Shown: piece after piece, positions 40,593 to 61,194 of the stretch
Layout: every line of letters begins with the position of its first letter
Position numbering within the stretch: the stretch's first letter is position 1
Notes under the pieces: generated by a model
The model's database searches: none
Seen by the model: only the letters and a program-made list of their open reading frames with translations
Told to the model about the DNA's origin: nothing
Position numbers and translations under genes: made by a program
Source of the DNA: Lactarius indigo
Lineage: Eukaryota > Basidiomycota > Agaricomycetes > Russulales > Russulaceae
Reading direction: 5' to 3'
Length of the DNA stretch: 64,000 bases
Assembly (NCBI GenBank): GCA_025766275.1
Contig: JAFKAC010000009.1
Span: 1,240,001 to 1,304,000 of the forward strand

Positions 40593-41087
40593 TGTTACGT
40601 TTCGACCCATACCCTTACTGTACCGGTTGCAACTACGGCGGTAAGGTAGATTAGTTGCGGACTTACGATAGGCGATTACAAGTACGATAGGGGATTGCGC
40701 GCTGATTGCTGACTGAGGACTATGCCACTAATACTAGTAGTAGTAGTATTAGGGTTCGAGCTACTTACGCGATACGTTGGACGCTACATTACCGTGACTC
40801 ATAGCAGCGCTTGAAAGCCTGCTCGACTTGTATTTAAACTGTCTTGTGAAGACCAAGATACGCCATCTTGGTCTTCTTGAATCGTCACTTGTTTCTCTCT
40901 CTCTCTTCTCTCTTTCTATCACCTCTTCTCAGAGTAGTGCACCTTTGAGTGTTCACCATTACCTGCGCTTGGACCTTTGTGTCTCAAGATAGTCGTCGCG
41001 CCCGGACCTCCGTGTCTTCAGAGCATTCGCTAAGTTGTTACCGCCTCTATTGAGCTCAAGTCGAGCTAACGTCGTGACGACGTTACA
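40593..41087 (+). repeat. Gypsy 5' LTR
   Basis: 495 bases beginning TGTTACG and ending CGTTACA. A TATA-like TATTTAAA lies at 40831-40838, and a hairpin-forming phrase around 40850-40875 (AAGACCAAGAT, five bases, ATCTTGGTCTT) sits where transcription should start. A CTAGTAGTAGTAGTATTAG microsatellite-like patch and a CTCTCT tract are also present. Confidence 0.97.
40831..40865 (+). promoter_or_regulatory. Predicted TATA box and transcription start in the gypsy LTR
   Basis: TATTTAAA at 40831 is 34 bases before ATCTTGGTCTT at 40865. A start at 40865 is inferred because that 11-base sequence is exactly complementary to the primer site downstream of the LTR. Confidence 0.55.
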
Positions 41088-41089
41088 TT

Positions 41090-41100
41090 AAGACCAAGAT
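41090..41100 (+). other. Gypsy primer-binding site, self-primed type
   Basis: AAGACCAAGAT lies two bases after the 5' LTR end and is the reverse complement of ATCTTGGTCTT at 40865-40875 in the LTR. It does not have the TGG start expected of a tRNA 3'-end site. The layout equals that of Tf1-type self-priming, where the first 11 nucleotides of the transcript prime minus-strand synthesis. Confidence 0.7.
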
Positions 41101-41619
41101 ACCACCGTGGCCGTAACAACAAGAGACCAGTGGACGAGCTTCCGTCCGTACTCGCTCCCAAGAAGAGGAGAACGTAACGTCCCCACGCGCTTTCTACAAG
41201 CTGCTAGTTGGAGGGAAAGACAAGAAGAAACCGGATATTTTGTAGAGTTCAACGGACCTAGCAGGTTCCGACCAGTTGAGTTCAACTTCGACCACTTGTG
41301 TTGGACGGAGGTTGCGTGGAATCCTATAGATTCCCAGTGGGACGTCATACGACCAGCTGGACCTAGATACCAGTGCGATATCGACGCCCGAGAACTCAAC
41401 AGCAGAGCAGACTGGGGCCCCATCGACGGGCAAGTACGGGAACACTCTACTGGAGAAGTGATATCAGAAGAAGAGGAACAAAGCCAAGACGAGAGCGAGG
41501 GACGAGAGCCAAACCAAACGGAAACTAGCGGAGGAGCAATACAAGATCTCCTCATCGAACGAGCTGAGTCCGCACACATTACCGAACCAGAGCCAATTCA
41601 CATCCGATCACCAGCCATT

Positions 41620-43170
41620 ATGGCGACAATAACAAGAGCAATGGAAGAGGTCGCAATTGAAGAAGCACGCGCAATACGAGACGAAGCACGAGAAGTCCTC
41701 ATGCCCATTAACCCTGAAACCAGTGTACGAATGACTGCAGACGACGCAGCCATCTTCCGAGCAATAGGGTCAGATCGAGGAGACCCCCCATCCGGACGAC
41801 AACCCGCACTAGACCTCCCACCGGGAAGGGGAGGACCGGGCGAAGACCCGCCACCGCCACCAGGAGGGGGTATCCCGTTTGATCTATGAAGAACCGAACC
41901 GCCAAGAAGGCCACCCATGGGACCGCCAGGAGGTGGAGGAGGCGATGGCGGAGGAGGAGGTGGTGGAGACGCCGGAGGAGGGGGACATCATAATGAAAAA
42001 CTAACCGGCGAGCCACCTTCCATTTTTGACGGAGACAGACTCAAAGTAGACCAATTCCTAACGCAGTGGCATGTCTATTGGGGCATGAATTTGGACGCCC
42101 CTATTATGCGCAACGACTACAGAAGATGCCTTCTGTTCCTTTCTTACATCAAAGGCGGAGTGGTCAGCGAATGGGTTCTATCCTTCCTGAACTGGCTCAA
42201 CAGGCAGATACAATGGGGAATAAGTCCCTACACTTGCGACCTATGGGATGCCGTAGCCAATGGATTCAGCCAGAGGTTCGAAAACACGCTAGAAAGAGAA
42301 CAAGCCCAAGCTATACTACGGAAGGGTTACAAAATGACGGGAGAAGACATTGACAAGTACGTCAATGACTTTGAACAGCTCGCACGGAAAGCTCACTATC
42401 GCCTCAATGAACCCCAAACCATTGACCTCTTTACGTCGGGTCTACCCAAGGAACTGTTCAAAAACGCATTCCAGTTCGACAACCCCGTCACGTTCGACGA
42501 CTGGAAAAGGGCCGTCCTCAAGCGGCAGAAGAACTATATCCACCTCAAGGCGCGACTCAATGAATACAAAAACACGACGACGCAACCCAAGAAGCAGGGT
42601 GGCAATGCGGGGTGGACACTCCCGCAGAACCTGCCACAAACCAACCCGTGGGCAATGGACACCTCGGCTGACCGTGCAAAAGTAAGGCTTGCGGGGTCCG
42701 AAGACGTCGATTTCAACAAATTGCCACACCGCGACTGGCCTACACCACCGTTCCCGCCAAGAGGAGGACCGGGAGCTCGAGGACGAGGAAGAGGAGGATC
42801 TCGAAGGGACTTAAGGAATGTTCTTTGCTACAACTGTCACGCTCCCGGCCACCTCTCACGAAATTGCCCATATCCACGTACACAGCAACAGTGGCAGGCT
42901 GCCCCATCCAGTAGCCGCATGACCGAAACTACTGGATATCCTCAAGGACCCGTCTCACAGTACGCGCCGTCGCAGTATGCGCCATCGCTACCCGGGTATA
43001 TGTCGCCAGTGCCAAGTGTGACGCCCGCACCCCAAATCAACGCGGCAAGCACGAAGACAGCGGGAGAACAAGCCAAAGAATGGCTCACACAGGTGGCCAA
43101 CAGTACGGATGAAGTAAAAGATCTTATACTTCAAGATCTATGGGGAAAAGAGGGTTTTCGGGACGCCTAA
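41620..43170 (+). pseudogene. Gypsy gag, interrupted by a TGA at 41887-41889
   Basis: The frame is open from about 41107 and the first ATG is at 41620 (MATITRAMEEVAIEEARA). It continues through a Pro/Gly-rich stretch to a TGA at 41887 and then runs on in the same frame, with an ATG at 41917, to 43170. The downstream 417 codons contain the capsid-like region (FDGDRLKVDQFLTQWHVYWG, GFSQRFENTLEREQAQAIL, GLPKELFKNAFQF), a Gly/Arg-rich box (RGGPGARGRGRGG) and the zinc knuckle CYNCHAPGHLSRNC at 42826-42867. The TGA is probably a former CGA, but re-initiation at 41917 would also give a full capsid-nucleocapsid protein, so gag function may survive. Confidence 0.8.
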
Positions 43171-46100
43171 ACCCATCAGTCTGGGTGAGGGCTCTTCAAT
43201 GTAATTCTGTAATTGTGACAACGCGCTACCGATCTATGAGAATCCCAGTGACTGTCCGCACGAATTACCAAACGACTGAAACAAAAGCGCTGGTCGACTC
43301 TGGCGCAACCGACAACTTCATCCGACCTAGCTTGGCAAAAAGGGCTGGTATCCAGACACAGCCACTGAACACGCCTCGCAAGATATGGAATATAGACAAC
43401 ACGGAAAATAAAGCTGGGTTAATCACTCATTATGTTAACCTAGAGGTGAAAACACGGGGACAAATAAAGCAAATGACCTTCCTGGTCACCGACCTTGGAA
43501 GCGAAGACATGGTACTGGGCTATCCGTGGCTAAGCGCGTTCGAACCAACGATCAGCTGGGCCACTGCCACCATACACCCCGACATGCAGCCGATAATGTT
43601 AGCAACTACCGAAGCGCTGCTATCGACAACAACCATTCGAGCCCTCATTGTGGCCGAAAAAGAAGACATTGTGTGGGAACTGGAGGAAGAAACGTCCGCT
43701 AGAGCCACCACCTCGACGGAGCTGGCCATACAAGCAAAACAACAACAGACGGCAGCAGTGCTCCCTCAGGAATACGCAATGTTTACCAGACTTTTCAACG
43801 AGCAGGCCTCGCACCGCTTCCCCCCGGCAAGGCCGTGGGATCATGCAATAGACTTCAAACCATCCGCGCCGGCCGCCATCGACTGTAAAGTCTACCCTAT
43901 GACCCAAAAAGAAGAAAGCGAACTCAAAGAGTTTCTGGAGGAGAAACTCAAGCAAGGGTATCTACGCCCCTCTATCTCTCCGTACGCATCTTCCTTCTTC
44001 TTCATTAAAAAGAAGGACGGAAAACTACGCCTGGTACAGGACTACCGGGTCATCAATTCCCATACTATTCGGAATCAATACCCACTACCGTTAATCCAGG
44101 ATCTCATCCTTGACCTCAGCAATGCCCACATCTATACTAAACTCGATATCCGATGGGGCTACAACAACATACGCATCCGCGACGGCGACCAGGAAAAGGC
44201 AGCGTTCAAAACTAAGTTTGGCCTCTTCGAACCCACGGTCATGTTCTTTGGGCTCACTAACTCCCCCGCCACCTTCCAAGCCATGATGAACCACATCTAT
44301 CACGATACCATTGCGAAGCATGAACGATTGGGCACTACCATACGCGTCTACATGGACGATATTGGTATCGCTACTCACTTTGATCACGATCTAGCGGCCC
44401 ATGTAGACGCCGTCCGCGATGTTTTGAGCGTTGCGGAGGAACACGACCTCTACTTCAAACTCGAGAAGTGCCTGTTCCATCAACCGCGGATGGATTACCT
44501 GGGGGTAATCCTTGAAAGGGGGGTGACCCGAATGGACCCTGTAAAAGTTCAAGGGATCAAGGATTGGCCAACACCAACAAAAGTCAAAGACGTCTGTTCT
44601 TTCCTCAGTTTCTGTAACTTTTACAGACTCTTTATCTGCGGTTTCGCAACTCACGCTAAACCACTCACTAAACTAACACGGAAGGACGAAGAATGGCGGT
44701 GGACTGAAGAAGAAGAAAAGGCGTTTAACACCCTAAAACGACTCGTGACGGAGGAACCGGTACTAGCACACCCCGTCCTTCAAGATCCATTCGAATTGGA
44801 AGTAGATGCGTCGGGCTACGCGGTGGGAGCCGTATTACTGCAGAAGAAATCTGACGGCAAGTGACATCCCATAGGTTACTACTCGGCGACGCTTTCCGAA
44901 GCCGAACGAAACTACGACATCTACGACCTAGAGCTGCTCGCGATAGTCAAGGCCCTACGAAACTGGCGACCACTCCTCGCAGGTGCCCCCCACAAGATTA
45001 AAATCTATTCGGACCATCTAAACCTACAGTACTGGAAGTCACCACAGAAGATCAGCAGGCGAGTCGCCAGGGAAGTACTCGAACTTTCTGAATACGACTT
45101 CGAGATTCACCACATTAAGGGAAAGAACAACGGGCGGGCAGATGCACTGTCAAGACGACCGGATTATGACCAAGGCGTCAAGGACAACAGAGAAGTAGTG
45201 GTCCTGCCCCCCGAAATCTTTGTACGAACCCTTAACACCACGCGCACCTTCATCGCCAACCCAAACCTACTACAACCACGCCACCAACAAGACGAGGAGG
45301 TGATCAAGATATGGATCGACCCTTATCGCCTTAAGAAAATACAAGGAGAATGGTACAAGGACGGCAGGTTCGTAATCACAGGGCCAGCGTCAACTCACCG
45401 AGTACTAATACATGACCATCACGACTTGCCAATACACGGCCATCCGGGAATTGCGAAAACTCAACGCATCCTGGAGAGACACTACTGGTGGCCACGACTC
45501 CGAAGAGACGTATATGAATACGTGCAAGGATGTGCAGAATGCCAAAAGAATAAAGTCAACACGAGGCCCATACGAGCCGCGCTGCATCCCATCACACCAA
45601 TACTGGAAGCCATGCCGTTCCACACGGTGGCAGTGGATTTCATCACCAAACTCCCCGTTTCCAAGGGGTATGACAGTATACTAACTGTCACAGACCACGA
45701 CTGCAGCAAGGCCTCCATCTTTATCCCATGCCGAGAAGAAATCACCGCAGAAGAAACGGCGACTCTGTATGTCGCCCAGGTGTTCAAACGCTTCGGATTG
45801 CCGCGCAAGATAATAAGCGACCGCGACCCATGCTTCACATCCAAGTTTACCAGAGAAGTATGCCGCATTCTGGGGATTCAACAGAATATATCAACCGCAT
45901 ACCACCCACGTACTGATGGACAGTCCGAGCGAACTAACCAGTGGCTGGAACAGTACCTACGCTTCTGGGTAAATGAGCGGCAAGATAACTGGGAAGCTTA
46001 CCTACCAATCGCTGAATTCGCGCACAACAACTGGCCACATGAACACACAAAAAAGTCGCCATTCCAACTTCTGATGGGGTACGACCCACAAGCGGACTGG

Positions 46101-47747
46101 ACGGACAAGCCATCTCCCATTCCCCTCGCGACCGCACGACTGACACAGCTAAAAGAGGCCAGAGACGACGCCCAACGCCTTATAAAGAAAGCGCAAGAGT
46201 CATGGGTGCGCAACAAAGATACGCCCAAGTTCAGCATCAACGACCTTGTATGGCTCGAAGGCAAACATCTCAGAACCAATCAGCCTACAGCGAAATTAGC
46301 GGCGCGACGCCACGGACCCTTTCGGGTGATACAGGTGATGTCCCCTTACAACTATCGATTGGAACTTCCCACGCAGTGGAGCATCCATCCAGTGTTTCAC
46401 ATCGATCTTCTCACACCATACAAGCAAACTTCCTTGCACGGAGAAAACTTCACACGACCACCGCCCGAACTGATAGATGGAGAAGAGGAATATGAAGTCG
46501 AGGCCATTCTAGACACTCGGCATTTCGGCAGAGGAAGACGCCTTCAATACTTGATCAAGTGGAAGGGGTACCCAGACTCGGAGAACCAGTGGGTCAACAA
46601 AGATGACGTCTTTGCGCCGGAAGCGCTTCGTCTGTATCAGGAAGCGCAAACCCACGGAAGAAGAGATAAAGTGGGAGTCGCTCGGACAGAGGACAGTCAT
46701 CCCCTCTTCCTTCGCTCAGCCACCACTCTCATGCCCACTTCCCCACTACGACATGTCACACAGGCGCAACTCCTCAACTCCCTCGCAGAAGACGCCCGCG
46801 CCCTCTTGGCAGAGGACAGCGACACCGAAATTCCCAACACTCAGCTCACGCCATGGACACCTCTTACATCAGCAGAGGGGCCCATCACCGCGCAAGAATG
46901 GGCCAACATCGTCACCAGATTCCCAGACCCGACAACTACCCCCGACGACGACCGAGCCGTCGTCCACGTCTTCCGAGACGATTGCGGCGAGCGTGAACCC
47001 ATCGCCGCTATCCCCCCAAGCGACGACCTCATCGGCGTTCGTGGAATTTTCCCGAGCAACGACCAGCGTTCAAGCGCTGATGGAGTACGAGTTGGAGGGC
47101 TGGAAGAGGGTAGCGGCGGCATGGCAGAAGGAGCAGTTGGACTCGGCAGCGGCCCGACTGAGGGAGATGCGCGAGCGACGGCAGCGATGGCGGCAGCTGA
47201 GGCTGGCCATGACGACGAAGATTATTACCCGGCGAGACACACCTTCCTTCGAACGAAACGCGACCCTGATAATCCCCTCATCACTCCCTGGCTCGTCTAC
47301 TCCGACGGGTCCCCCATGTATCGAGGACGTGTGCGCGTGCCTGGTGCCGCCGATCACCGTCCATTCACTGCCGCCGAGGACCCCGCGCATGTCATTGCGC
47401 CTGAAGGGTTCCGGGCGAACCGACGACCCCATCACATTCGATACCCCATCACCGGGCCGGACGGAGTAGAGAGGGACGCGTCGCACGTCCAGATCATCGG
47501 AGGGGCAGACCCCCTCATATTAGGGGTCATACCAGGCTCGCCACACGTCTATGGTAAGCCCCTCTACGCAGAACCTCACGTATCCGCGGCGCTCCGCCCC
47601 ACGTATCCGCACGAGGACCTCGTCGTCTTCGAGGCGGACAAGATCACCGACCGCGCGCTCAATCGCATTAACGACGAATCGCTCACCGCGGAGGTTACGC
47701 GCTTCCGCGCGGCCAGCTACGAGCTGGATCGACTTCAGGCGAGGTGA
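43140..47747 (+). pseudogene. Gypsy pol polyprotein, one in-frame TGA at 44862-44864
   Basis: One frame runs the whole length except for a single TGA between the RT and RNase H parts. In order: aspartic protease LVDSGATDNFIRP (about 43290-43325); reverse transcriptase with KKKDGKLRLVQDYRVIN, FGLTNSPATFQ and YMDD (44349-44360); RNase H with LEVDASGYAVGAVL before the stop and ALRNWRPLLAG, KIYSDHLNL after it. The integrase has the zinc finger H-H-CAECQKNK and the DDE core (AVDFITKLP, ISDRDPCF, GQSERTNQWLEQY). A chromodomain follows (YEVEAILDTRHFGRG, YLIKWKGYPDSENQWV; about 46490-46620). The TGA replaces what is normally Arg in the DGKRHP block, so CGA to TGA is likely. Otherwise the gene is intact, which fits a young insertion. 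The chromodomain places it among chromoviruses. Confidence 0.93.
43143..43158 (+). promoter_or_regulatory. Two slippery heptamers at the gag-pol overlap
   Basis: In gag phase the sequence contains G GGA AAA (43143-43149) and G GGT TTT (43152-43158), both of the X XXY YYZ form. Pol lies in the -1 frame and overlaps the last ten codons of gag, so either site could deliver the -1 shift. An ATG at 43140 also opens pol, so re-initiation is an alternative. No downstream pseudoknot was established. Confidence 0.5.
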
Positions 47748-47878
47748 GCCAGCTCCGCGCAATGATCGAATGCGCGCAAGACGATCGACGCGACGCGATC
47801 TACCGCTTGGAGCACGCCACCGCGTTAGAGCGTATTGCCGATGAACAGCGCGACTGGCCGGCCCGCGACTTTCAGTGA
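46640..47878 (+). other. Gypsy 3' accessory coding region in three frames
   Basis: Beyond the chromodomain there are 1.2 kb with protein-like sequence but no known domain. Up to about 47040 and again from about 47210 to 47747 the pol frame looks coding (NPLITPWLVYSDGSPMYRGR, DPAHVIAPEGFRANRRPHH). Between them the next frame carries an amphipathic helix-rich segment (MEYELEGWKRVAAAWQKEQL, RLREMRERRQRW). After 47740 a third frame continues (EVSQLRAMIECAQDDRRDAI) to a TGA at 47876-47878. This is either one old extension with small indels or a set of overlapping small frames. Confidence 0.5.
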
Positions 47879-47895
47879 GCCAGGGGTCTCACGCT

Positions 47896-47906
47896 AGAAG
47901 AGGAGG
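47896..47906 (+). other. Gypsy polypurine tract
   Basis: AGAAGAGGAGG ends three bases before the 3' LTR start at 47910. This is the expected primer for plus-strand synthesis. Confidence 0.8.
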
Positions 47907-47909
47907 TGA

Positions 47910-48404
47910 TGTTACGTTTCGACCCATACCCTTACTGTACCGGTTGCAACTACGGCGGTAAGGTAGATTAGTTGCAGACTTACGATAGGCGATTACAAGT
48001 ACGATAGGGGATTGCGCGCTGATTGCTGACTGAGGACTATGCCACTAATACTAGTAGTAGTAGTATTAGGGTTCGAGCTACTTACGCGATACGTTGGACG
48101 CTACATTACCGTGACTCATAGCAGCGCTTGAAAGCCTGCTCGACTTGTATTTAAACTGTCTTGTGAAGACCAAGATACGCCATCTTGGTCTTCTTGAATC
48201 GTCACTTGTTTCTCTCTCTCTCTTCTCTCTTTCTATCACCTCTTCTCAGAGTAGTGCACCTTTGAGTGTTCACCATTACCTGCGCTTGGACCTTTGTGTC
48301 TCAAGATAGTCGTCGCGCCCGGACCTCCGTGTCTTCAGAGCATTCGCTAAGTTGTTACCGCCTCTATTGAGCTCAAGTCGAGCTAACGTCGTGACGACGT
48401 TACA
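47910..48404 (+). repeat. Gypsy 3' LTR
   Basis: 495 bases, identical to the 5' LTR except A at 47976, a CpG to CpA change. It is followed by the target duplication CAGAT at 48405-48409. Confidence 0.97.
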
Positions 48405-48539
48405 CAGATCCTTCAGTCGCCAAGCTAACCCATACTGGTGGCAAGTCTCGGAGCGCGCTCAAAACATTCATCGTCAATCCTTTTTTTTTTTTGCGTCGTT
48501 GCCATTCCCTTTCCAACCCTGCAGCATGGGCCCAGGTTC

Positions 48540-49039
48540 ATTTCCTCTGCGACCATGCAGCGTGTAGCCTCTGCCCCAACGACACCCCGTCCCAGCAGCA
48601 GCGCCAACGTCTTTTACCAACCAAGCCCCCAACCGCCGCACAGCCGCTCCGGCTGCCAGTCTTCTGATCAAAGTTTGATCAGAAGACTGGACGCTTGTGG
48701 ACCACGACCTCAAAGTGCTAGTCCGACTTCTCGGTAAGTCCCCCGCTATGGCCATTCACTGTCCCTATTTTAAATCCACTTATTGCGTGCAACATAGGTC
48801 TCGGCGATATTCAAGACTCGGCGAAAACTCGGACACGCCCACTTGTTCGTGCCGGAGCTCGTGAGCACTGTCTATCCGCGCCAGGTCGAGCTCGCAAGCG
48901 CTGCCGCCGCAGCGAGCGTCGGAGCTTGACCATCCCAGTTGGCACGCGGCACGAGTCGCCCGACTACTTCCCTGGCCTCATTAAGGTGTCGCATCGTACG
49001 CCCCTGGGCTTGGCGTCGCGGTGCAAATACCTTGGCTGA
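48540..49039 (+). CDS. Possible two-exon hypothetical gene fragment
   Basis: An open segment ending at a GTAAGT donor (exon end 48733) joins in phase to 48798-49039, giving LVDHDLKVLVRLLG, then LGDIQDSAKTRTRPL and a basic tail ending CKYLG. A perfect palindrome at 48656-48690 disturbs the upstream frame. No domain is recognised. It may be a piece of the unknown gene at 52683-61013, or unrelated. Confidence 0.25.
48656..48690. repeat. Perfect 35-base palindrome
   Basis: CCAGTCTTCTGATCAAA and its exact reverse complement flank a single central G. Chance is very unlikely. It may be a recombination scar, a foldback insertion that duplicated host sequence, or a binding site. Confidence 0.85.
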
Positions 49040-49110
49040 CTGTAAGTTATTTCCGCCAACTCTGTTCCATTCCCATGACTAAATACATTGGTTCTTATAT
49101 ACAGGCAAGA

Positions 49111-52100
49111 TCAAATCACCTCGGCGTCGGTGTTGATACCACATTCATCTGGTGTTAGTAGGGTAAGTCCCGGATGTCTCCGCAGTATATGGACACGGTT
49201 ATTGTGAGTCCAAATTCCGATGAGGCTTACTATTGCTGATGTTTCAAGCACATAGACCTTTGGTGACCACTTCCCATACCATCTCCCAAACAGCTGATGG
49301 CGCTCTACCAAGGGATGATAGACAACAAGGGAGAGGCCAGCAGCAGTATAGAAGGCCACAGCCTCCCCAAATATTGGTTTGTTCTTCTCCACCTCTAGTA
49401 CTGTTTCATCTGTGGGCTGATCTCTTGACTGTGACATCTTTAGCTGAGCTTCAAAGTACCTTGAGGAACGGGAAGTGTGCTTTTTTGAGAGCTCAAAGAG
49501 CTGGCTTGTAAGGGTAGTGTGATTGGGAAGAGGGCACTTTCCCCAACACATGACTTCTTCCTTTACTTCAGGGTAAGACTGTTGAATTGCCAGTAAGTGT
49601 GCCTTCAAATTAGCATCTTCCCTTTTCTTCTTCTTGCTAATTGGAAACTCTTTAAATAGGGAAGTCCTTTGAACCCTTTCTTCAGGTGTGGGGAAGGGTG
49701 TTGGATAGGCAAGATGTAGAAGTCTAACAGACTGCTTGTCTGCTGTATATGAGACTATATTTTTGAAGGGGGATTTTTTGGACCTGATGCCATGTCCAAT
49801 ATCTCCTATGGCCCGTTCACATGTAGCTTGAGAGCCAAATCTGATAGAGCCATTATATGAAATATGGAAGGGGACATGAATAAGCTGGAAGATGCATAGT
49901 CGGCAGCGGGGAATTTTGGATGGATCATTGCCAACATAGAGGTGTTCAAATCCTTGAAGAAAAAGGACAATCTTCTTATAAAGCTTAGATAAATCCTCCT
50001 CTGTTCTAGTGACAGTTGTCATGGCATACTCCACCACATTGGAGAATATGGCAAAGTTCTTGATCACCTCATGGTCAAATCCAAGCTCCCATGCCATAGG
50101 GACAATATACCAGTGGAGAAGGGCCATCCACTCATATATTTTATATTGACTTTGGCGCTTTTTGTGGGGGTCCCGAATAGGTCCACAAAAGGATGAAGGT
50201 AGTGTTGCTATAGCACTTTCAACCTCTGCTCCAAGCTCTGAAGCAATATCTGGACTCATGTAGACCTGTTCTGAATTGGAGCTGAATGAGGTCCATATAT
50301 CCCAGATGTGTGGCATGCAGTTTTCATAGAAGAGATGGAAGGGGTCAAGTGGGAAAAAGAATGGATGTGAGAAGGCAGGGCTGGCAGCACAAATAGGAAG
50401 ACCAGAGACACCAGTTTCCCGCACAATTGCTGCATACTGTGTCTTGTTGCTCTTTACAGCTTCAAGCCTCTTGATAATTTCCCAGTAGTCCTCTAGAGTC
50501 CGAAGTGGCAAGGAAAAAATGTCAAAGTCAGGGCGATCCCCATTGATCTCCTCTTTTTGAGGTGGGGAGAGGGGATAGTACTGGGATTTGGCACCTATGA
50601 GATAATATATAAGATAAAATGATACAATAATATTCAAGTGAGATACTCATACCTCTATCTTTACTAGCGCGTGCACCCCGCACCATACTAAAACGGCATC
50701 CATGTATAGCCATATGTCCCGCCATTCTGCTAAGTTTTGCAGAACCAAGCATATCTCCAAGAACACCACAAAGAAAGACCTTCAAAAGGAAGTATGTTCC
50801 TTTAAGTGCATCAAAGGTCCATACACCAACACTAAGCTTTGCAAGCTCCTCATAGAGGACATAAATGAATGACTCCACATTTCCAGGTGAAGAGGGCCCA
50901 GGGATGACAAGTGGAATGATGATGTTGGCAGCTTTAGACCGCATGTTGGGAGGGAGGTTTAAGATGGTGACAATGAGGACCCAGACATCAGACTGCTTCT
51001 TCATAGTAAGCTGAGCACCATCACCTGAGATGGTTATTGCAGTATCAGTCTCATCTTGAAATAAATGGTGTTGGAAATGATTGATATGACTAATAGAGTC
51101 AGAAAAATCAGAGTATTCAGTGGGGGGGGAATCTGGCTTCAGCTTGTTCAAAGCCTCTTGTAGATGGTGATGCCGATACCGCATGGCTGCTGCCATTGTC
51201 TTGTTCATATAAAGTGACTGAATAACAGGGGCAATGGGGGTATAGAGCATTTGAGCCCTTGGATGACCATTCTTGTCATAGCGTGGCTGACCGCATAGCC
51301 CTAGCCGTTTGTCACGAACATAGATGCATGACTGAAGGTCTTTGAACTCTCCAGTAAAGGCCATGCAGCTTCTGGGACACATGTCAACCAGCTGAGAGGA
51401 TAATCCTGTAAGTTCCATGGCAAGCTTTCTTGCCATATACAAGCTAAGGATGTCAGCACCTGTAGCCTCCTGAAGGACCTGTGCATGGAGCCTGTATGCC
51501 TTGACAGTACCATGAGAGTCAACCCATGCAATGTAGTGCTTCAATGAAAGCTCCTCATCTGGAGTAAGTGTACGACCTCTGGTGTCAGTAAAAGGTGGGT
51601 GGTTAGGATGTGTGTAGCCAGATAAAAGTTGCACCCGAAGTTTTTGAATGACCTCTGGTAAGTCAGCAGCCTCAGCAGCAAGGGCCTCATCTCCTTCAAG
51701 ATCAGCACCATCTAGCTCTCCCCTAAGCAAAGGGCCAGGGTCCAAAGTGTCTGTGTGCCCTACTGGAGGAGGCATCATAGCAGGATGAAGCTGAGGTGAG
51801 CCAGAGTCATCATCATCAGAGTCTGGATCTGAGAAGCTAGGTTGGGGCTCAGACAGCATAGCATGCTGATCTTGCTCTGAGTCAGAAAGGTTGGGGTCCA
51901 TCCCTGGGTGAGTGGGCTCAGCATCAACTGCAGCAGCATCAGTAGAGCCTAGATCAATGCCTGTATTGACATTAACAGGGCTAAAAAGATCATCTAATAC
52001 CATGCAGCAGTGAGCACAGATTCTACTTTACACTAAAATAACACTTACCAAGCTCTATGGCTTCCCCTTGATGGTGATCAGGAATTTCCAAGTGAGCGTC

Positions 52101-52473
52101 GGCCATCTGAGCCAGGTGATCTACATAATTGTGTGCCGCTTTGATGTTAAAAAATAATAATAAAAATAATTGTTAAGTACAGGGAGCCCGAGTTAATGAC
52201 TCTAAACACACCTTCTGAGCCATCTGGGCGAGATCCACCAGCAACTGGTGCTGTATCAGGAGGGATATGGTCCCCATGGACCTGAGAAAGGAGTTCTCTT
52301 GTCCGATGAATGCATGATCGCACGAAGGGGGCAAAATCTGTATTTGATGATAGGGACAAGAGAAAGTCTTGATCTTGCCGTAGATGGGCCTCAATAGTGC
52401 GTTTTGTGACACTACTTGCCCCTCCATTGCACTTAGAGCATGGGCAAATGTATCGTTGAGATGATGGAGGCAT
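49111..52473 (-). CDS. Tnp2-type (CACTA/CMC superfamily) transposase
   Basis: Four exons close in phase: 52212-52473, 52049-52138, 50653-51993 and 49111-50594, for 1058 residues with no stop or frameshift. The N-terminus has the Cys-rich box typical of basidiomycete Tnp2 proteins (YICPCSKCNGG, then RTIEAHLRQD). An acidic linker follows (FSDPDSDDDDSGS), then the catalytic region with AITISGDGAQLTM and GTYFLLKVFLCGVLGDMLGS, and HLFYENCMPHIWDIWTSFSS after the last intron. It moves DNA by cut and paste. A start at 52560 is also open. Introns are AT-rich, and the coding sequence is strongly CpG-poor compared with its neighbours. Terminal inverted repeats could not be fixed by eye, so the element's limits are not given. 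It appears capable of making protein. Confidence 0.83.
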
Positions 52474-52682
52474 GAGTTGCACAGGATCAACGAGGATATG
52501 TAGAACAAGGGTAGGGACGAGAGTGAGCGCAGACTCCAGTGTGGAGCGTGAGAACGGCACGTGTTCTACAGGTTCTGGTAGTCATGTTCGCCTCACATTC
52601 AACACGCCTAACTTACCACTTGTCTTTTTGTCTTTTTCCGAGCTTGTTCGTATACGACCCTCGGTGCCTCTGAGCTTGAACC

Positions 52683-53727
52683 ATGGACTTTGAGGATGAT
52701 ATCTTCCATCTGAACGACCAGTCCCCTTCGTGTATGGGCTTCCGCTTTGACTACAAGGACGAAGACGAGGTCGAGGATTTTGTGGGTACCCAACGTGCAC
52801 CGAGACCTCCACTGAGGTCAAGGCCACCAATCGACTTTGGAGCTGGACGGTGCTCAACCATCAACTCCAACGTCGGCCTCTCTGGGTTCAGTGCCGCTAC
52901 CCATCCACCTTCCCACATGTCCGACACAACGCTACACTCCGGTCTTGGCCTTTTGGCAGGACACACGTTTCCACACAAGACGTCTTCATCGCCAAGGCCC
53001 TCTCCGGTTGTTATTGCCTCACTGACTGTCGCTGAACTTTGTTACAACCCCCACTACCTCAAATTACGCAAAAAGTTTGACCAAGTGTGCAGGGCCCTTG
53101 CCATGAAAACTGTAGAAGGAGGCTTCACCCCTGCCGATACCCTTGTCCCGGACAGCCGCCAGGGTGTGTACTTCATTCTCGAGTCCTGGTATTAACTAAA
53201 CGACTAGCCCCCACAGCACCTCTGCGCACCAAAGAGTCTTGCGCATCGTCTTTGGGTCTGCACACTGAAGAGTCTCGCGCATCATCTTTGGGGCCAAGCG
53301 ATTCGGCATCTCAACAAATGAAGTTCGATTTTGCATACGACAAGGCCGTCGAAAGTCTTCTCGAAACTGTGGAGCCGCTGTCCATACGGCCACACTTCCT
53401 TGAGAAAGAGGTCCTATGGTACGCCGAGGATTGCGCAACTGACAAGAAGTATGGCGACATCATCACGAGGATGAATACGTATCGACCGAAGATGAGTCTC
53501 GTCATCCGCCGCCCGGACGGCTCGAAAGTCTTGACTCAAGAGTATTCAAACATCCGACGTTCCACGGTCATTCTCGTTCAAAGACTCATCAGTCTCGTTG
53601 CCTCGAACCCCAGCACGGCCATGCACGCTGATGACCCCAAGTCACGGACCAAGTCGTTCATCAAAAACTCATTCAAGACTGAATACAATCAAGCCATGCT
53701 CGAGCTCGAAGCAGAGCACAAGTTGCT
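52683..53727 (+). pseudogene. Unrecognised host gene, 5' part, cut by the copia insertion
   Basis: Exons 52683-53163 and 53217-53727 join in phase (GTGTGT donor). The protein starts MDFEDDIFHLNDQSPSCMGF, an acidic and aromatic N-terminus. A Ser/Pro-rich part with two near-identical short repeats (KESCASSLG, EESRASSLG) follows, then a compact helical region (FDFAYDKAVESLLETVEPLS, FLEKEVLWYAEDCA, VRRPDGSKVL-like IRRPDGSKVLTQEYSNIRRS, AMLELEAEHKLL). The frame runs into the copia target duplication TTGCT at 53723-53727 and resumes in the same frame after the element. I recognise no domain. It lies 210 bases from the Tnp2 start, in the opposite orientation. Confidence 0.6.
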
Positions 53728-54029
53728 TTTAGGATCTAACAAGAGTCGCTATCCCTCAGCGTGCTGGAGCAACGAGCTGGGATTATGATACTGTACCTAA
53801 CAAGAGTCGCTACTACGGTTTGGAGTCAGTTAGGTGTCGGTAGGTAAAGTATGAGTAAAGTCACTTACTCCCTCAGCGTGCCGGAGCAACGAGCTGAGGG
53901 CGCATACAAGCATGTAATCGACTATATAAGGTATTTTCCGTTTATGCATGCCAAAGACTCGTAAGGGTAAATTCGTAATTCCCCTGTTTCATCAGCGGGG
54001 ATCATCGCCCATTTCCAGAAACTTCTACA
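53728..54029 (-). repeat. Copia 3' LTR
   Basis: On the element strand it begins TGTAGAAG and ends GATCCTAAA, so the usual terminal CA is absent. It holds two internal duplications: TAACAAGAGTCGCT at 53737 and 53798, and CCCTCAGCGTG with GGAGCAACGAGCT at 53753 and 53870. Confidence 0.95.
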
Positions 54030-54038
54030 CTCCCCCTC
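54030..54038 (-). other. Copia polypurine tract
   Basis: On the element strand GAGGGGGAG lies directly before the 3' LTR. Confidence 0.75.
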
Positions 54039-54039
54039 A

Positions 54040-55785
54040 GCGCGAACTCTGATTCAGTGCTGTCAAGTCCTTCTCCAAAACCCAATGTAGGCCCAAGCAG
54101 CCACGAAGGCGGAAGAATAGTGGCCCTGGAAGCGGCTTCGTTAGAATATCCGCGACGTTATCTGTTGTCGGAATCTGGGCCACGATGATTCTTCCTTCAT
54201 CAACGTGCTCTCGTATCCAATGATATCGCACGTCGAGATGCTTGGCTCGGTTGTGAAAGGCTTGGTCCCCGCACAGTAGCACGGCAGCAGTATTGTCGCA
54301 TAAGAGTGGGGTAGCCTGCGCAGGTTTGTAGCTGAGCTCTCCAAGTAGACTCCTGAGCCATATTAGTTCGCGTCCGGCTTCAGATGCCGCCATATACTCG
54401 GCGGCGCAGGTGGAGTCCGCAATTGTACGCTGTTTCTTTGAGGACCAAGAAATCATGCCGCTCCCAAGGCTGAAACAGTAACCGCTGACGGATTGCCGCC
54501 CATGTGGTCCGGGATCGCTCGCATAATCTGAGTCACTGTAACCAAGTAAGGAAGGAGCGGAGTCAAGACCCCCAAGTCTCAGCACGAAGTCGCGCGTTCC
54601 CTTCAGGTAGCGTACTACCCGGAGTGCCGCACGCCAGTGGACTTCACGGTAGCAGTCGACAAAACCCGAGAGTTTACTGACTGCGAATGCAATGTCTGGA
54701 CGAGTGCCGCAAGCAACGTACATCAGCGAGCCAACCAATGAGCGATATGGGAGAGACGCAAGTCGTTCCTGCTCCCCCTCATCTATTGGTTCCTGGGGAG
54801 TGGGGCGTGTAAGCTGCGCGCCGTGTACCATAGGCGTGCTAGCGGGCTTGGCGTCGGTCTGACCATAAGTAGTTATGATCTTGTCAATCAACGCGGTTTG
54901 GCTGAGTGAGATTGTTCCGCATTCCAAGTTTCGCTCCAGTGCGATCCCAACTACGAGTTTGGGCTCCCCAAGCGCTGTTATCTGCCATTTTGACTGGAGG
55001 TCAGCGTGGAACTGGGCTGCTTCAGCATCACTAGACGATGCCGCTATCATGTCGTCAACATGTACGGCTACAACGGTGATACCCTCATCGGTGCGACGCG
55101 AGTAAACACACCACTCGCATTCGAATCTTTCGAACCCCCATTCGATGAATGCTTCGTGGAGGGTCTTGTTCCATATGCGTGACGACTGTTTCATTCCGTA
55201 CAGACTGCGCTTGAGCTTCCAGACATGTGTCTCCTTGCCGGATTCAATGAAGTCGGAGGGTTGTTCCATGTATTGGGTTTCCTCCTCCGGCAGAACTCCG
55301 TATAGAAAAGCGGTCTTCACGTCATATTGTTCTAAGCGCCAGCCGTTTGATGCAGCGATATGTAGGATCGCGCGGAAGGACTCAAGGCGTGCCGTGGGGG
55401 AGGTGGTTTTTGTAAAGTCCCTCCCCCACACCTGCTGAAATCCCTTCGCCACCCAACGCACCTTGTGCCGCACAGGCTCACCATGCCCATTACGTTTTAG
55501 TCTGCAGACGAAGCGTCCTCGCAACACCTTTCAGTCGACAGGCACTGCAGTCCTGGGGACCAGCTCGAACACGTCCATCTCTCGTAGGCTGTCAAGCTCT
55601 GATTGAGCGCCAGCCAACCATTCTTCTTTGTCGATTGAGCCCATTGCCTCCGCCCATGATGGTGCATCTGGGTCATCGACGTCGATAAGGAGTGTGGTGG
55701 GATTGTCGGTGTTCTCAGGTGTACTGCGCGAGGTTATTTGCCGACGCTTTGTCCGCCTGTTTCGCAGCTGCTGCCGCTCGAACAT
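54040..55785 (-). pseudogene. Copia reverse transcriptase and RNase H, with one TGA
   Basis: The RT-RNase H frame from 55527 down is open for 496 codons: VRWVAKGFQQVWGRDFTKT, TAFLYGVLPEE, RSLYGMKQSSRIWNK, the catalytic HVDDMI (about 55050), LVGSLMYVACGTRPDIAFAV, then RNase H with SDSDYASDPGPHGRQSVSGY, STCAAEYMAASEAGRE, HLDVRYHWIREHV and ADILTKPLP. The same frame continues upstream to 55785 (SWAEAMGSIDKEEWLAGAQS), interrupted only by TGA at 55531-55533, where an Arg codon is usual in the family (PVD-R-K). CGA to TGA is the simplest cause. Confidence 0.92.
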
Positions 55786-55827
55786 TGTTCAAGCGCTCGA
55801 GTCATTGCCCTCCCATGACTAAGCCCA

Positions 55828-57330
55828 TCATTGGTGCTTTCTCGTGACGGAACTGGGACATGCTGTCGCGACGATCAGTCGTAATGCAACAGCGTCAGGT
55901 CTTGACTCATGGTCGGTGACGTCAGGCTGGTGTATCGTCTGGGGTAATGGAGTGAGCAGGCGTGTCATCTGAGGGTAGAGCAGGGTGCATCGAGGTGTTC
56001 GATGAATGAGACTGTGGTATGAGTCAACGACTCGTCCACTTTCCCGGTGCCAGCATCGGTATGCTTTGGAATTGGGTGTGTACCCGATTAATACGCATTC
56101 GATGGATCGCGCAGCAATCTTCGGGTTACTACCGTTGATCAGCACAAATGCGTGGCAGCCGATTTCCTGCAGGTGTGACAGCGAAGGTTTCTTTTTATAC
56201 CACATCTCGAAAGGGGATCGTCCCTCAAGTGATTTTGTGGCTGGTGAGCAGTGGAGAGGTAGGAGGAGGTCAGTATGAACTCGTCCCACATATGCAGAGG
56301 GGCATTGCACAGCGAGTCGCATAGTGCGGGCTTTGTTCATTAGCGTGCGGTGCAGGCGTTCAACTCGACCATTCTGAGCCGAAGTATACAGGGGCAGTGA
56401 ATTGGTGTGTGATTCCCTGCAGCGCGCACCACTCAGCTACCTCGTTTGACCTGCAGTTCACCATTGTCCATGAGCAAGTATGTTAGCTTTTCTCTGGATT
56501 CTGTTTCAACCGCATTCAGCCATTCTCGAAGTGCTCGAGCAGCGTCCGATTTTGATCTGAGCAGCTGGGTCCAGTGATAACTTGAGAAATCGTCAATGAT
56601 ATTCATTATGTACTGAAACCCGGATTCGCGAAATGACAGAGTGTGGTCCGGAAAGGTCCACATAGACTCGCTCAAGCCTCCTACTCACCTTCATCCCTTC
56701 GCGCTGCTTTGGTATCGATGATCGTGTCTGCTTGCCACGAATACAATGGTCACAAGCCTGAGGAGCTGGTCGACAAGTCGATTGGCATACCTGCAGTTAT
56801 GCCATGGGACGCCATGTCGAGTATGGTTTTGTAGTTGGCATGCCCAAGTCGACAGGTGCCAGGTCTCCAGGTTTGGTACTGTTACCAGGCTCTGCAGCTG
56901 CTGAGCGAGGGGTTTTTGGGTGATGTTTCGCAGGCACAGTCATCAGGCAATGCGTAGAGGTTGGAGCCAGTTCGTTCCCCTGTTGCAATGAGTTGCCCTG
57001 TTCTGGCCAATAATGAGGCATTGTGTTGGGGTGAAGGCGATTACTGTTCCCCAAGTCGCTCAAACGGCTGATAGAGAGAAGGCGAACTCCGGCATTGGGA
57101 GCATACAAGGCGCCGTCAAGTTTAACGGATTTGCCTTGTATTGACAGCTCAATTGTCCCAGTAGCGTTTGCGAAGATGGAGTAGTTACCAACACCAGAAA
57201 TACTGGCGGGGCTCGATGGGTTGAAGGGAAATAAAGTCTGATTTGACGCAACTGATGTGGACAGAAGCACCGGAATCAAGATAGAAGGGGAGGCTAGAGG
57301 ACTGGCTGAGCAGGGCAATGTCGCACGCTA
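55828..57330 (-). pseudogene. Copia protease, GAG-pre-integrase and integrase, frameshifted
   Basis: Pieces appear in order but in different frames: protease LDSGASVHIS (about 57265), GAG_pre-integrase with CDHCIRGKQTRSS (about 56745), the integrase core YIMNIIDDFSSYHWTQLL with its second Asp, and the C-terminal part EGRSPFEMWYKKKPSLSHLQ and IGYTPNSKAYRCWH. At least three frame breaks separate them, so no functional integrase can be made. Confidence 0.85.
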
Positions 57331-57509
57331 GAAGCACAGAGCTCAGTGTCAAGTTGAGCAGAGTCTGAGTTACTGGCAGCCCACTCAGGTATACTCCCCC
57401 TGATCAGCAGGCATCATAGGTAAGTCCATGTCCTGCGTCAGCAAGATTGGCAGCCAGTTTGTCTAGTTTAAACCAGAAGTTGCCGATCACAAGAGTGGTG
57501 CCATCATCT

Positions 57510-58888
57510 TCAACGCACATGCGTGAAGGCATTGTCAGACTGGGGATGGGAAGCTTCCCGAGCAGCCCGCTGCCTGTGCCACAGCATCGTGGGCAGACTG
57601 GCCAGCCATCTTCCCACCTGGGGCAATGCAGAACTCGAACCGTGTGGCCAGGGTTTCTTACAGTTCAGGGCATATGTTAGCACGTGGAGGGAGGGACACC
57701 GGAAGAGCTGAAAGATGAGCTGGGCAAGGAGTTCTGGGCGAGTTGTGCCGAGCGCAGCTCGTAAGTAATAATGCATGTGGAGGTCCATCACTTCGACACT
57801 GATTGTACCATCCATCAGGGAGAGGGCCAGGGTGTCATGTACTGATGGATGCGTCGTCTTCAGCCCAAGGATGAGAAACAGAAGACCCAGTTTCACTGTG
57901 TTCGATTTGACCGATACTGTCAATTCGATAGACAAGATCTCGAAATGATGCCATAGTGGTGTCGTAATTATTCGGATCATTGTCGAAGGGGATATGCATC
58001 ATTCGTTGAATGAGTTGAATTTGGGTCATCCCACTTCGCTTTTCATGTCACAAGCGGAGCTGGTTGAATGCGTCCACGGAAGTGGCGCAGGAAGCAATAT
58101 ACTGAACCTCAGCGGTGAACATCTGGGATCGCATGTATCCCAGGATCATCCGGTCATTGCCATTCCAGAAGCGATGGCCGACTGAGTCTCTGTTGATGTC
58201 TGGGCAGTGCAGTAACCCAAGGGGATACTCATCTAGTTGGTTCATGGCGAGTGCCCCAAGGAGATGGTGTGACCATTCGAGCCAGTTGTTGGTGTTGAGC
58301 GACAGTTTCAGGTCGCTGGGCCAGGGTGGCATTCCGGAGAGTGACTCCCATTTGACTGTGGGCTCTTTGGGAGCGCGCAGTCCGTTGAGCAGGGGCTGTG
58401 GCTGGCAGATGTTATTGGAATGGCGTGCACTGATCGGCTGTTGCTGCTGTTGGGGAGGGGTGAGGTAATATGGGTTTAACCCTGGCTGCTGAGTTGGGTA
58501 CAGTGTCAGTGACAGGGGTTGACTGAACAGTCCATGCGTGAATAGGGGCGGTGTCAGGGGTGGCAGTGAGTGCATGGACGGAGACATGTGTGTATATGAT
58601 GGCATTCCTGTAGCCGCAGCGGGCGACGTCAAGGACATGGGGGCTGACCCATGTGACCTGGGTATCAAAGTCAGCTAATTGTGTGGAGTGTGTGTATGGT
58701 ATGGAAGCAGCAGCAGCAGCAATATTCTCTGATGGCAGTATTGGCAAAGTTCGAAAACCCCAGCAGGGGTATAAACCTGTATTTGAGTTTGGGGCTCGTC
58801 CGCAGACGCAGCTCCTGCAGGAGACGAAGAGTTGCGACAAATGAGTGAGACTACTAAGGGGGGATTCGTCCGTCACTGGCAGTGACAT
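57510..58888 (-). pseudogene. Copia gag, frameshifted
   Basis: Three frames share the coding sequence: MSLPVTDESPLSSL at the start, a Pro/Gln-rich part (YYLTPPQQQQQPISARHSNN) leading to a gag domain (LSLNTNNWLEWSHHLLGAL, RSQMFTAEVQYIA), and MMHIPFDNDPNNYDTTMASF in a third frame. A Cys-containing segment (NCKKPW) near 57660 is what remains of a nucleocapsid part. Confidence 0.75.
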
Positions 58889-59008
58889 CTTGAGCTTTTC
58901 AGGTCAGAGACTATCAGCAAGTTTAACAGACACAGAATGGTTTTCTTTGCAAGCGTGTGCACACTGAGAGCGATAGCGTTGGGCAGGATTTGTCAGGCGA
59001 GACCCTCA

Positions 59009-59020
59009 GGGCCCATAACC
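59009..59020 (-). other. Copia primer-binding site for half initiator tRNA-Met
   Basis: Directly inside the 5' LTR the element strand reads GGTTATGGGCCC. Its complement, GGGCCCATAACC, is the anticodon arm and loop of initiator tRNA-Met (CAU anticodon). Copia-type elements use a cleaved 5' half of this tRNA as primer. Confidence 0.75.
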
Positions 59021-59322
59021 TTTAGGATCTAACAAGAGTCGCTATCCCTCAGCGTGCCGGAGCAACGAGCTGGGATTATGATACCGTACCTAACAAGAGT
59101 CGCTACTACGGTTTGGAGTCAGTTAGGTGTCGGTAGGTAAAGTATGAGTAAAGTCACTTACTCCCTCAGCGTGCCGGAGCAACGAGCTGAGGGCGCATAC
59201 AAGCATGTAATCGACTATATAAGGTATTTTCCGTTTATGCATGCCAAAGACTTGTAAGGGTAAATTCGTAATTCCCCTGTTTCATCAGCGGGGATCATCG
59301 CCCATTTCCAGAAACTTCTACA
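59021..59322 (-). repeat. Copia 5' LTR
   Basis: 302 bases. It differs from the other LTR at 59058, 59085 and 59253, each a C/T difference at a CpG. It is followed by the target duplication TTGCT. Confidence 0.95.
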
Positions 59323-61013
59323 TTGCTCCGCCTGTGCGATGCTCATTGGAAAGCTGACACTTTAATTGGCGTGGTGTTCCTGCAGCGAAGCATGGCCGAA
59401 AGCAAGGCAGCGTCGAACCGCGCCCACGCCGCTTCTTCAATACCTCCTGACGATACCTCGGAACCACCCACTGCGCCAATCCCGCAAGTTTGGGACGTGG
59501 CACCTGTGAACGCGGCAAAGCGTGCCCTCGAGTTGAGCCCTGGTCCCAAATCCCCTTCGGCATCGCAGGCTCAAAAGCACAGCAAGGATGGCATCGCACT
59601 CACTGGACAGAAGACTACGGGCCCTCCCGTTTCCTCAAATCGTAAGTACTCTATTTGGTGAAGTTTAAACACTAACTCGTACTTGCATGCAGAGCCCCTA
59701 CATGCACGCAAGCTCGTTCCTACCTTCCTCAGTCGCACCAAGGAGATCAACGCAGAGCCCCCATCAACGAATCTCCATCCTGTCTTCGTCGATCCATCTG
59801 GTGCGTCCACCCCACTTTTATGACCTACACCATTCTGACTCGAGGTCGAATGCAGCCGATAACCTTATCGGTGAGTCGAAATTCTCTGCGAGCACACTAC
59901 CATTGACTGTCCTCACAGCGGTCCTCACCTCTGAATTTCCCGCCTTGACAAACGCCGTCGCCCTCGTTCGCTCCATGAATGCACAGATGTTGTTTAAGCA
60001 AGGCAAATCTTCCCACAATGTCACGACGCTGCTCAAGCAAGTGCAATTCGCAGACCCGGGTTCACCAGACATCGACGAAGACAATACATGTCTAAGTTGG
60101 GGCCATGATCTATTCACGGCAGGTGGTATCAGCCCGTCATCCTCACTCACCACCTGGGAGGATGTCGGCAGCGTTGCCACCGCCTTCAAATTAGTGGCAG
60201 CCGCCCTCAAGACATGTCGGGAAGCGCGGCTAATGTGCACGAACACTGGAACGCCACAGACGGGTGGCTTCATTAGCGACGTTTATCTCGAGAAAATTCT
60301 CGAATGTCTGGAGAACTGTTGGGTCGGCGCTGGCGGGGTACGTATTCGACTATTCCGAGTTTTTTTTTTATCTCATTATTGTATGATAGGTGATTACTTC
60401 TCGTGTCCCGGTCCTCCCCACCACACCACCTACCCCTTCCTATCGTGATGTCGCGATGTCGCCCCCAAAGCGTAGGGTCCTGCTCAAAGTCAAGCAGCCA
60501 ATGCCCGCCACAAATACCATTGCCCCAACCAGTATCCCAGCAGCTTCCACAGAAAATGACTCTACCAGTGCTCATCAGCCTGCCGCCGAAACAGAACCCA
60601 CGCAAGAGCCTTCAGTGGCGTTAGATGAGGTGCGTTGGGTTCAATTGTGACCTCCAAGCTGCTCACCCACACCCTGTAGGGAACTCGCGCAGATGCCACG
60701 TCGTTGAAGTGTCTTCAAGTATCGGAACTGCTTACCTGGATCAGCGACAACAAGCTCAGTGCGCCAAAGTCAAGGCGCAAGGACGGTGCGTTGTATACAT
60801 TCGAGTTCTGGCCTTGCAGAGTAATGACCATGGCACAGAACTCATTGCGGCCATTGTCAAGTCCTCGGAATTCGCACATGTCTCCAAGTCTGCCATCCAA
60901 GAAATTGTCGACAATGTGAGGTTCTCATTTCGTACTTCCCCATGCTGACCCCATGTCGTCAGCGCAAGGTCGTGAAAGGGTCAAAAAGGCAGCTCGCTGC
61001 TGCACCACCTTAG
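59323..61013 (+). pseudogene. Unrecognised host gene, 3' part, after the copia insertion
   Basis: The frame resumes at the target duplication (LRLCDAHWKADTLIGVVFLQ) and splices on through exons ending at 59641 and 59800 (QPLHARKLVPTFLSRTKEIN). Further parts are SEFPALTNAVALVRSMNAQM, GGFISDVYLEKILECLENCW, a basic proline-rich segment (MSPPKRRVLLKVKQPMPA) and a last exon ending KGSKRQLAAAPP at 61013. A one-base frame break lies near 60820 (between FEFWPC and NDHGTELIAAIVKSSEF). No family is recognised. Apart from the insertion and this break the gene looks recently alive. Confidence 0.55.
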
Positions 61014-61094
61014 TGCGCACGCACGGGGAGGCTCTGATCGCTTTGACACTTTCATCAAAATACCCAGTTTGGTTTGTCGGTGCTTGAGATTCTT

Positions 61095-61107
61095 GGGGGG
61101 GGGGGGG
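61095..61107. repeat. Run of 13 G
   Basis: An uninterrupted G tract just before the start of the GACTTGGGATGAC-rich repeat. Such tracts are prone to length error. Confidence 0.8.
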
Positions 61108-61194
61108 TTTTCTGAATTTTTTAACATACATACGATGACCAGTATACCCTGAGCATGACTGCCGGTGAATATATTTGACTTCAGAGTGCACAAA

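What the first reader, a model, noticed from the sequence alone, without database searches (positions are those of the whole stretch)
40593..59322. Every LTR mismatch and every premature stop in both retrotransposons fits CpG deamination
Seen: the gypsy LTRs differ once (G40659 vs A47976, CpG to CpA). The copia LTRs differ three times (53765/59058, 53792/59085, 53960/59253), each C/T with a following G. Three TGA codons at 41887, 44862 and 55531 interrupt otherwise open frames; for the two in pol (44862, 55531) the family usually has Arg at that place, so CGA was likely. Four of four LTR differences at CpG is far from chance. Inference: these repeats are or were CpG-methylated and mutate mainly by C to T, as a methylation-linked defence in Agaricomycetes.
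Basis: partly seen in the sequence, partly recalled or inferred. Interest (0 to 1): 0.75.

Follow-up and report, generated by a model that had tools for sequence, protein, structure and literature searches.

The report
CpG-only decay of mushroom transposons
In this milk-cap-like mushroom genome, inserted mobile elements change almost only where a C is followed by a G, as expected if those sites are methylated and slowly decay, which breaks the elements and would distort attempts to date them.

Summary
The four LTR differences are all CpG transitions. In 22 gypsy LTR pairs of this genome (27 tried, 5 dropped), 77 of 83 substitutions are CpG transitions, with CpG at 14% of positions. Both retrotransposons sit inside a 10 kb DNA transposon; against its second copy (contig C215) 40 of 40 differences in 6,611 compared bases read as CpG hits (38 strictly), versus 11 to 13 of 53 in single-copy DNA of the window. 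The TGA codons are CGA in most other copies; a fourth, at 58048-58050, fits too. Private CpG changes ignore codon position, other changes do not. There is no wider context, no clustering and no consistent strand run. This favours slow 5-methylcytosine deamination over a RIP-like burst; the genome encodes DNMT1-RFD. Methylation itself was not observed. Known kind; unusual purity.

The parts
38135..61629 (.). Nested block: one DNA transposon (about 10.08 kb without its guests) with 23-bp perfect inverted ends, 7-bp target duplication AATGACG at 38128-38134 and 61630-61636, carrying the gypsy and the copia
   Evidence: Contig C72 joins window 38134 to 61630 and lacks the block; ends and duplication read; second copy at C215:1792115-1802191
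50528..52024 (-). Tnp2 transposase part of the DNA transposon (PF02992)
   Evidence: Pfam E 1.4e-13
40593..41087 (+). Gypsy 5' LTR
   Evidence: 99.8% identical to the 3' LTR, one difference, target duplication CAGAT
47910..48404 (+). Gypsy 3' LTR
41887..41889 (+). TGA in the gag frame; CGA or CGG in 11 of 13 other loci
43113..47747 (+). Gypsy pol frame: protease, RT, RNase H, integrase, chromodomain; interrupted once
   Evidence: Pfam on the pieces either side of the stop
44862..44864 (+). TGA inside RNase H; CGA in 28 and CGG in 1 of 29 other pol copies
53728..54029 (-). Copia 3' LTR (element on the - strand)
   Evidence: 99.0% identical to the other LTR, three CpG differences, target duplication TTGCT
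59021..59322 (-). Copia 5' LTR
55531..55533 (-). TGA in copia pol; CGA in the C216 and C35 copies
58048..58050 (-).
55717..58828 (-). Stretch of the copia with 34 one-base insertions against C216, 26 of them A or T inside a CpG
   Evidence: the count of 26 read by eye
20000..25993 (.). Single-copy control DNA: 53 substitutions against C72, 11 CpG transitions

Best explanation
Once an element has inserted, its CpG sites are methylated (inferred), most likely by a DNMT1-RFD (Masc2-type) enzyme. 5-methylcytosine then deaminates to T now and then, one site at a time, on either strand and whatever the neighbouring base. These changes make up nearly all substitutions of a resident copy, so LTR pairs and sister copies differ almost only at CpG, and CGA codons turn into TGA stops. 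The lineage that keeps replicating escapes most of this and gathers mainly third-position non-CpG transitions instead. Shown: the spectrum, its restriction to mobile DNA against one single-copy control, its indifference to codon position, the lack of wider context or clustering, and the encoded enzymes. Inferred: that the sites are methylated and that deamination is the chemistry.
For: 77 of 83 LTR differences (22 pairs) are CpG transitions, about 76 times the per-site rate of the rest; in the 15 pairs with a script-confirmed target duplication 46 of 48. DNA transposon, window against C215: 40 of 40 read as CpG, 38 strictly, CpG at 578 of 6,611 positions. Single-copy control: 11 of 53. Private C-to-T at CpG falls on codon positions 58/59/43, other C-to-T 35/12/114, T-to-C 20/24/82. 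Rates in ACG, CCG, GCG, TCG alike in pol: 10.9, 13.2, 14.2, 12.1 per 1000. Hits not clustered: 9.0% of neighbours within 50 bp against 9.7% at random. DNMT1-RFD and methylase motifs together at C234 and at C235. A mushroom with measured methylation shows it high in repeats: Marasmius oreades (PMC9674265, passages); in Ganoderma sinense 98.7% of 5mC is at CpG (PMC4457147, passages).
Against: No methylation data. Same-strand neighbours are slightly too many in pol, 78 of 134 (P 0.006), though not in LTRs (19 of 42) or the DNA transposon (17 of 38). In the LTRs ACG and CCG are hit about twice as often as TCG and GCG, which pol does not repeat. The excess over other sites (76-fold, above 139-fold for the DNA transposon) is larger than I recall for mammals. 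Three stop sites in pol of 11 are not plainly CGA in the other copies.
Confidence: 0.8

Rival explanations
1. A RIP-like process that senses repeats mutates CpG actively around meiosis, as RIP does at CpA in Neurospora.
For: The CpG excess is very large. Pol shows a weak same-strand tendency, 78 of 134, P 0.006. CpG-biased mutation has been read as RIP-like in Rhizoctonia solani and Ganoderma sinense (PMC4014442 and PMC4457147, passages).
Against: No dense bursts: 0 to 8 CpG hits per LTR pair, mean 3.5, variance 5.6; no clustering, and no strand runs in LTRs or the DNA transposon. The low-copy copia is hit as well. Caveat: the search scored only the 40 best candidates, which works against finding heavily mutated copies.
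Confidence: 0.12
2. The C/T differences are consensus errors: methylated CpG miscalled in long reads.
For: The insertion stretch of the copia and the insertion clusters in two gypsy copies suggest that some consensus is weak, with a CpG bias. Hits per LTR pair are near Poisson, as uniform noise would be.
Against: Three pairs of twin copies with 235 to 250 CpG each show no substitution over 3,701 bases each, where the LTR rate would give about 24 per pair (my estimate); but the twins are inverted neighbours and might share reads. CpG depletion to 0.25 of expectation with TpG and CpA excess in the older transposon cannot be noise.
Confidence: 0.06
3. CpG is hypermutable in this genome with or without methylation.
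For: Fission yeast has mutable CpG without methylation (PMC4704713, title and start of abstract in the listing).
Against: Single-copy DNA of the window shows only 11 to 13 of 53 at CpG, against 40 of 40 and 77 of 83 in mobile DNA (Fisher P below 1e-13 on each reading), and keeps CpG at 1.04 of expectation.
Confidence: 0.02

Closest known systems
CpG-type C-to-T decay of basidiomycete transposons tied to Masc2-like DNMT1 (PMC4352252, passages)
   Same: CpG target, basidiomycete host, DNMT1 with RFD, methylcytosine deamination proposed as cause
   Different: Here measured on LTR pairs and one sister pair of a DNA transposon, with nearly no other change and a split by codon position
CpG-biased 'RIP' in Ganoderma sinense (PMC4457147, passages)
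   Same: Agaricomycete; C:G to T:A changes dominate in repeats, CpG preferred, affected elements methylated
   Different: No methylome here; the paper reads its changes as RIP, I read these as gradual decay
TpCpG-biased RIP-like mutation in Microbotryum (as described in PMC4352252, and PMC4014442)
   Same: CpG target in a basidiomycete
   Different: No preference for T before the CpG here
RIP of Neurospora and relatives (recalled, and PMC4352252 passages)
   Same: C-to-T change that inactivates repeats
   Different: Target CpG, not CpA; no dense bursts seen

Membership tests
Methylation-linked CpG decay, basidiomycete type | Substitutions of resident copies concentrated at CpG | tested here: met
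   77 of 83 in 22 LTR pairs; 40 of 40 (38 strictly) in the DNA transposon pair
Methylation-linked CpG decay, basidiomycete type | Restricted to, or far stronger in, mobile DNA | tested here: met
   11 to 13 of 53 in one 6 kb single-copy control
Methylation-linked CpG decay, basidiomycete type | DNMT1 with RFD encoded | tested here: met
   RFD at C234:293712 and C235:108278 near methylase motifs at C234:296456 and C235:105559; gene sequences not read
Methylation-linked CpG decay, basidiomycete type | The CpG sites are methylated | not testable with these tools
   No methylation data
RIP (Neurospora type) | CpA preference | tested here: not met
   Private C-to-T in pol: CpA contexts 2.0 to 6.5 per 1000, CpG 10.9 to 14.2
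RIP (Neurospora type) | Dense, strand-coupled bursts | tested here: not met
   weak same-strand excess in pol only; decayed copies under-sampled
RIP (Neurospora type) | RID gene | not tested
TpCpG RIP-like mutation (Microbotryum) | T before the CpG | tested here: not met
   TCG 12.1 per 1000 in pol, within the range of the others; lowest in LTRs
Ty3/gypsy chromovirus | Protease, RT, RNase H, integrase, chromodomain in this order between LTRs | tested here: met
Ty1/copia | RVT_2 reverse transcriptase downstream of integrase | tested here: inconclusive
   RVT_2 E 4.9e-51 and an SH3-like domain upstream; the integrase core was not scanned because frames are broken

The most novel reading that the evidence does not exclude
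Besides C-to-T, methylated CpG in some resident copies also suffers a CpG-directed one-base insertion that turns CG into CAG or CTG. In the window copia 26 of 34 one-base insertions lie inside a CpG, all A or T, with no deletion and no duplicated C or G; a gypsy copy on C266 (3 of 14) and one on C221 (2 of 5) show a weaker form. A real process could be excision of 5mC or its oxidised forms on both strands (38 TET/JBP matches over the cut-off) followed by end joining with one untemplated base. If real, it would be a new, frameshifting mutation signature of DNA methylation.
Probability: 0.15. Interest if true: 0.8.

Novelty: new member of a known kind. Interest (0 to 1): 0.45.

Why it matters
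Resident elements here change almost only at CpG, so LTR dating with a single substitution rate would misdate insertions, and the share of CpG changes becomes a readout of time spent methylated. The contrast between CpG changes that ignore codon position and other changes that do not separates an element's life as a resident from its life as a replicating lineage. The DNA transposon pair (window and C215) is a clean natural yardstick for the mutation cost that CpG methylation would impose on fungal repeats.

Tried and rejected
Rejected: that C215 is the allele of the window. My notebook said so first; searches show that C72 is the likely allele and lacks the whole block, and that C215 holds a second copy of the DNA transposon. 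That C72 is an allele and not a duplicate is inference. Rejected: TpCpG context; clustering. Led nowhere: a six-frame search for UDG-family repair enzymes found no match, possibly a false negative for an intron-split gene; paper searches gave nothing close; PMC12543289 (two passages) held nothing on Basidiomycota under the terms used.

Rows dropped before counting. Of 27 LTR pairs tried, five were left out: C221 (14 differences, 5 CpG, no target duplication), C216a (40, 7 CpG, half an LTR), C216b (66, 12 CpG, wrong extraction), C250 (3, 1 CpG, no target duplication) and C220b (one LTR not found). Of the 22 kept, 15 have a target duplication confirmed by script; C13, C112a and C112b by eye after an offset; C29 has one C/T difference in it; C229a, C291a and C291b show none. 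C229a holds two of the six non-CpG changes. C291a and C291b may not be independent. Fetched ends without a usable LTR pair: C268, C1, C24. Three identical twins were removed before private pol variants were counted, leaving 27 copies. Only the 40 best of 2,410 and 1,333 candidates were scored by the searches. The polarity count (71 C-to-T against 8 T-to-C at CpG) rests on a multiple alignment with some misplaced gaps and lists 91 differences instead of 83.
Full report
What is there. The window is G000:C281:1240001-1304000 in a 90.3 Mb assembly of 291 contigs. A 270-residue protein of the window is 91% identical to one of Lactarius psammicola, and other named close relatives are also Lactarius, so the host is a milk-cap-like Agaricomycete. 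The gypsy (40593-48404, + strand; protease, RT, RNase H, integrase, chromodomain) and the copia (53728-59322, - strand; RVT_2) lie inside a third element. Window 37700-38134 and 61630-63300 are adjacent on contig C72, which lacks everything between. The block 38135-61629 has perfect 23-bp inverted ends and a 7-bp target duplication and encodes a Tnp2 transposase (PF02992). A second copy of this DNA transposon lies at C215:1792115-1802191, with a single CAGAT and a single TTGCT where the window has the gypsy and the copia. So the two retrotransposons inserted into a copy of the DNA transposon that was already there.

The observation. All four LTR differences are CpG transitions. The three TGA codons are real. 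At 41887, of 13 other aligned loci 9 have CGA, 2 CGG, 1 TGA and 1 CAA. At 44862, 28 of 29 other pol copies have CGA and one CGG. At 55531 both other copia copies that cover it have CGA. A fourth nonsense codon, 58048-58050, is CGA in the C216 copia; C216 in turn has two TGA where the window has CGA. Over pol 43113-46697, 11 codon sites carry a stop in at least one of 30 copies, ten TGA and one TAA. Eight of the eleven are CGA in most other copies, one is mostly AGA with some CGA, one is CGC and one is CAA.

The wider count. Of 27 gypsy LTR pairs tried, 22 were kept. They differ at 83 aligned bases: 77 CpG transitions, 5 other transitions, 1 transversion; CpG covers 1,588 of 11,052 positions. 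Eighteen pairs differ at CpG only, one not at all, three (C229a, C120, C112b) also elsewhere. The DNA transposon pair was compared over 6,611 of its roughly 10,080 bases: 40 differences, 38 at a CpG present in one copy, and two neighbours (53643-53644, CA against TG) that I read as one CG hit on each strand. Single-copy DNA of the window (20000-25993; its first 3 kb found at only one other place, C72) has 53 substitutions, 11 of them CpG transitions, or 13 if the CA/TG neighbours at 21079-21080 are read in the same way. Either way the contrast is strong (Fisher P below 1e-13). Copia, window against C216: 102 of 135 substitutions are CpG transitions, and against C35 252 of 419, summed over aligned pieces with small overlaps.

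Two phases. Leaving out three identical twin pairs, gypsy copies differ from their nearest relative by 2.9 to 5.4% in pol, with non-CpG changes in the majority, although their own LTRs differ by at most 1.9% and nearly only at CpG. Private variants of 27 pol copies (528 in all) split the same way: 160 CpG C-to-T changes fall on codon positions 58/59/43, while 161 other C-to-T changes fall 35/12/114 and 126 T-to-C changes 20/24/82 (CpG sites available 4,627/3,782/4,849). CpG changes look unselected, as in copies that no longer matter; the others look filtered by selection in a replicating lineage. This would explain why the gypsy keeps CpG at 1.05 of expectation: the replicating source seems to escape the decay, in line with the low methylation of active transposons in Marasmius oreades (PMC9674265, passages).

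How it works. In pol the rates in ACG, CCG, GCG and TCG are alike; in the LTRs ACG and CCG are about twice TCG and GCG, which pol does not repeat. Both strands are hit. Same-strand neighbours are 78 of 134 in pol (P 0.006), 19 of 42 in LTRs and 17 of 38 in the DNA transposon, and hits are not clustered. The enzymes fit: DNMT1-RFD and methylase motifs at C234 and C235, more methylase places at C270, C112, C27 and C57, and 38 TET/JBP matches over the cut-off. I conclude gradual deamination of methylated CpG, methylation itself being inferred. Base-calling noise is not excluded but is hard to square with three twin pairs of 235 to 250 CpG that agree over 3,701 bases each or with the deep CpG loss at 49041-52500.

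The insertions. Between 55717 and 58828 the window copia has 34 one-base insertions against C216 and no deletion; C216 is open there in one frame apart from two TGA. Twenty-two lie inside a CpG of C216 and four more inside a CpG inferred from decayed states in C216 or C35; all 26 are A or T (read by eye). CpG is 6.3% of the steps there. Among 30 gypsy pol copies only L060 on C266 (14) and L033 on C221 (5) have private one-base insertions, 3 and 2 of them CG to CAG or CTG, most of the rest duplicated bases. The C221 element has mismatched ends. Insertion-only clusters in a few copies look like weak long-read consensus; the CpG bias stays unexplained. One search for such an error in print (listing only) showed nothing that I could tie to it.

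What is known. CpG decay of basidiomycete repeats through methylation is in print: PMC4352252 (passages), PMC4014442 (passages), PMC4457147 (passages) and the review PMC13297926 (passages). Searches, over open-licence papers only, listed no paper that I could recognise as using LTR pairs in this way in a mushroom. The kind is known; the purity and the two-phase split are the addition.

Noticed in passing
window 49041-52500: The transposase part of the DNA transposon has CpG at 0.25 of expectation while the rest of the same element has 0.90 to 1.04. The differences between the window and C215 copies are too few to have caused it, so the loss is older than their split; why it is confined to this part is open.
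   Followed up: partly
G000, whole genome: At least 38 TET/JBP matches over the cut-off; none of the 39 listed matches lies in the window's DNA transposon.
   Followed up: no
G000, whole genome: No match to the uracil-DNA glycosylase family PF03167, which rings in 13 of 14 control genomes; may be missed because of introns.
   Followed up: no
L035/L036 (C216), L040/L041 (C291), L050/L051 (C112): Three pairs of inverted neighbouring gypsy copies without a substitution over 3,701 bases of pol, while ends and flanks of the C291 pair differ, mostly at CpG. Gene conversion, duplication or assembly could cause this.
   Followed up: partly
L014/L015 (C221): Gypsy element with no matching target duplication and 14 LTR differences, 9 not at CpG: a recombinant or a misassembly.
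   Followed up: no
window 37080-37643 and 63348-63998: A direct repeat of about 86% identity lies on both sides of the nested block.
   Followed up: no
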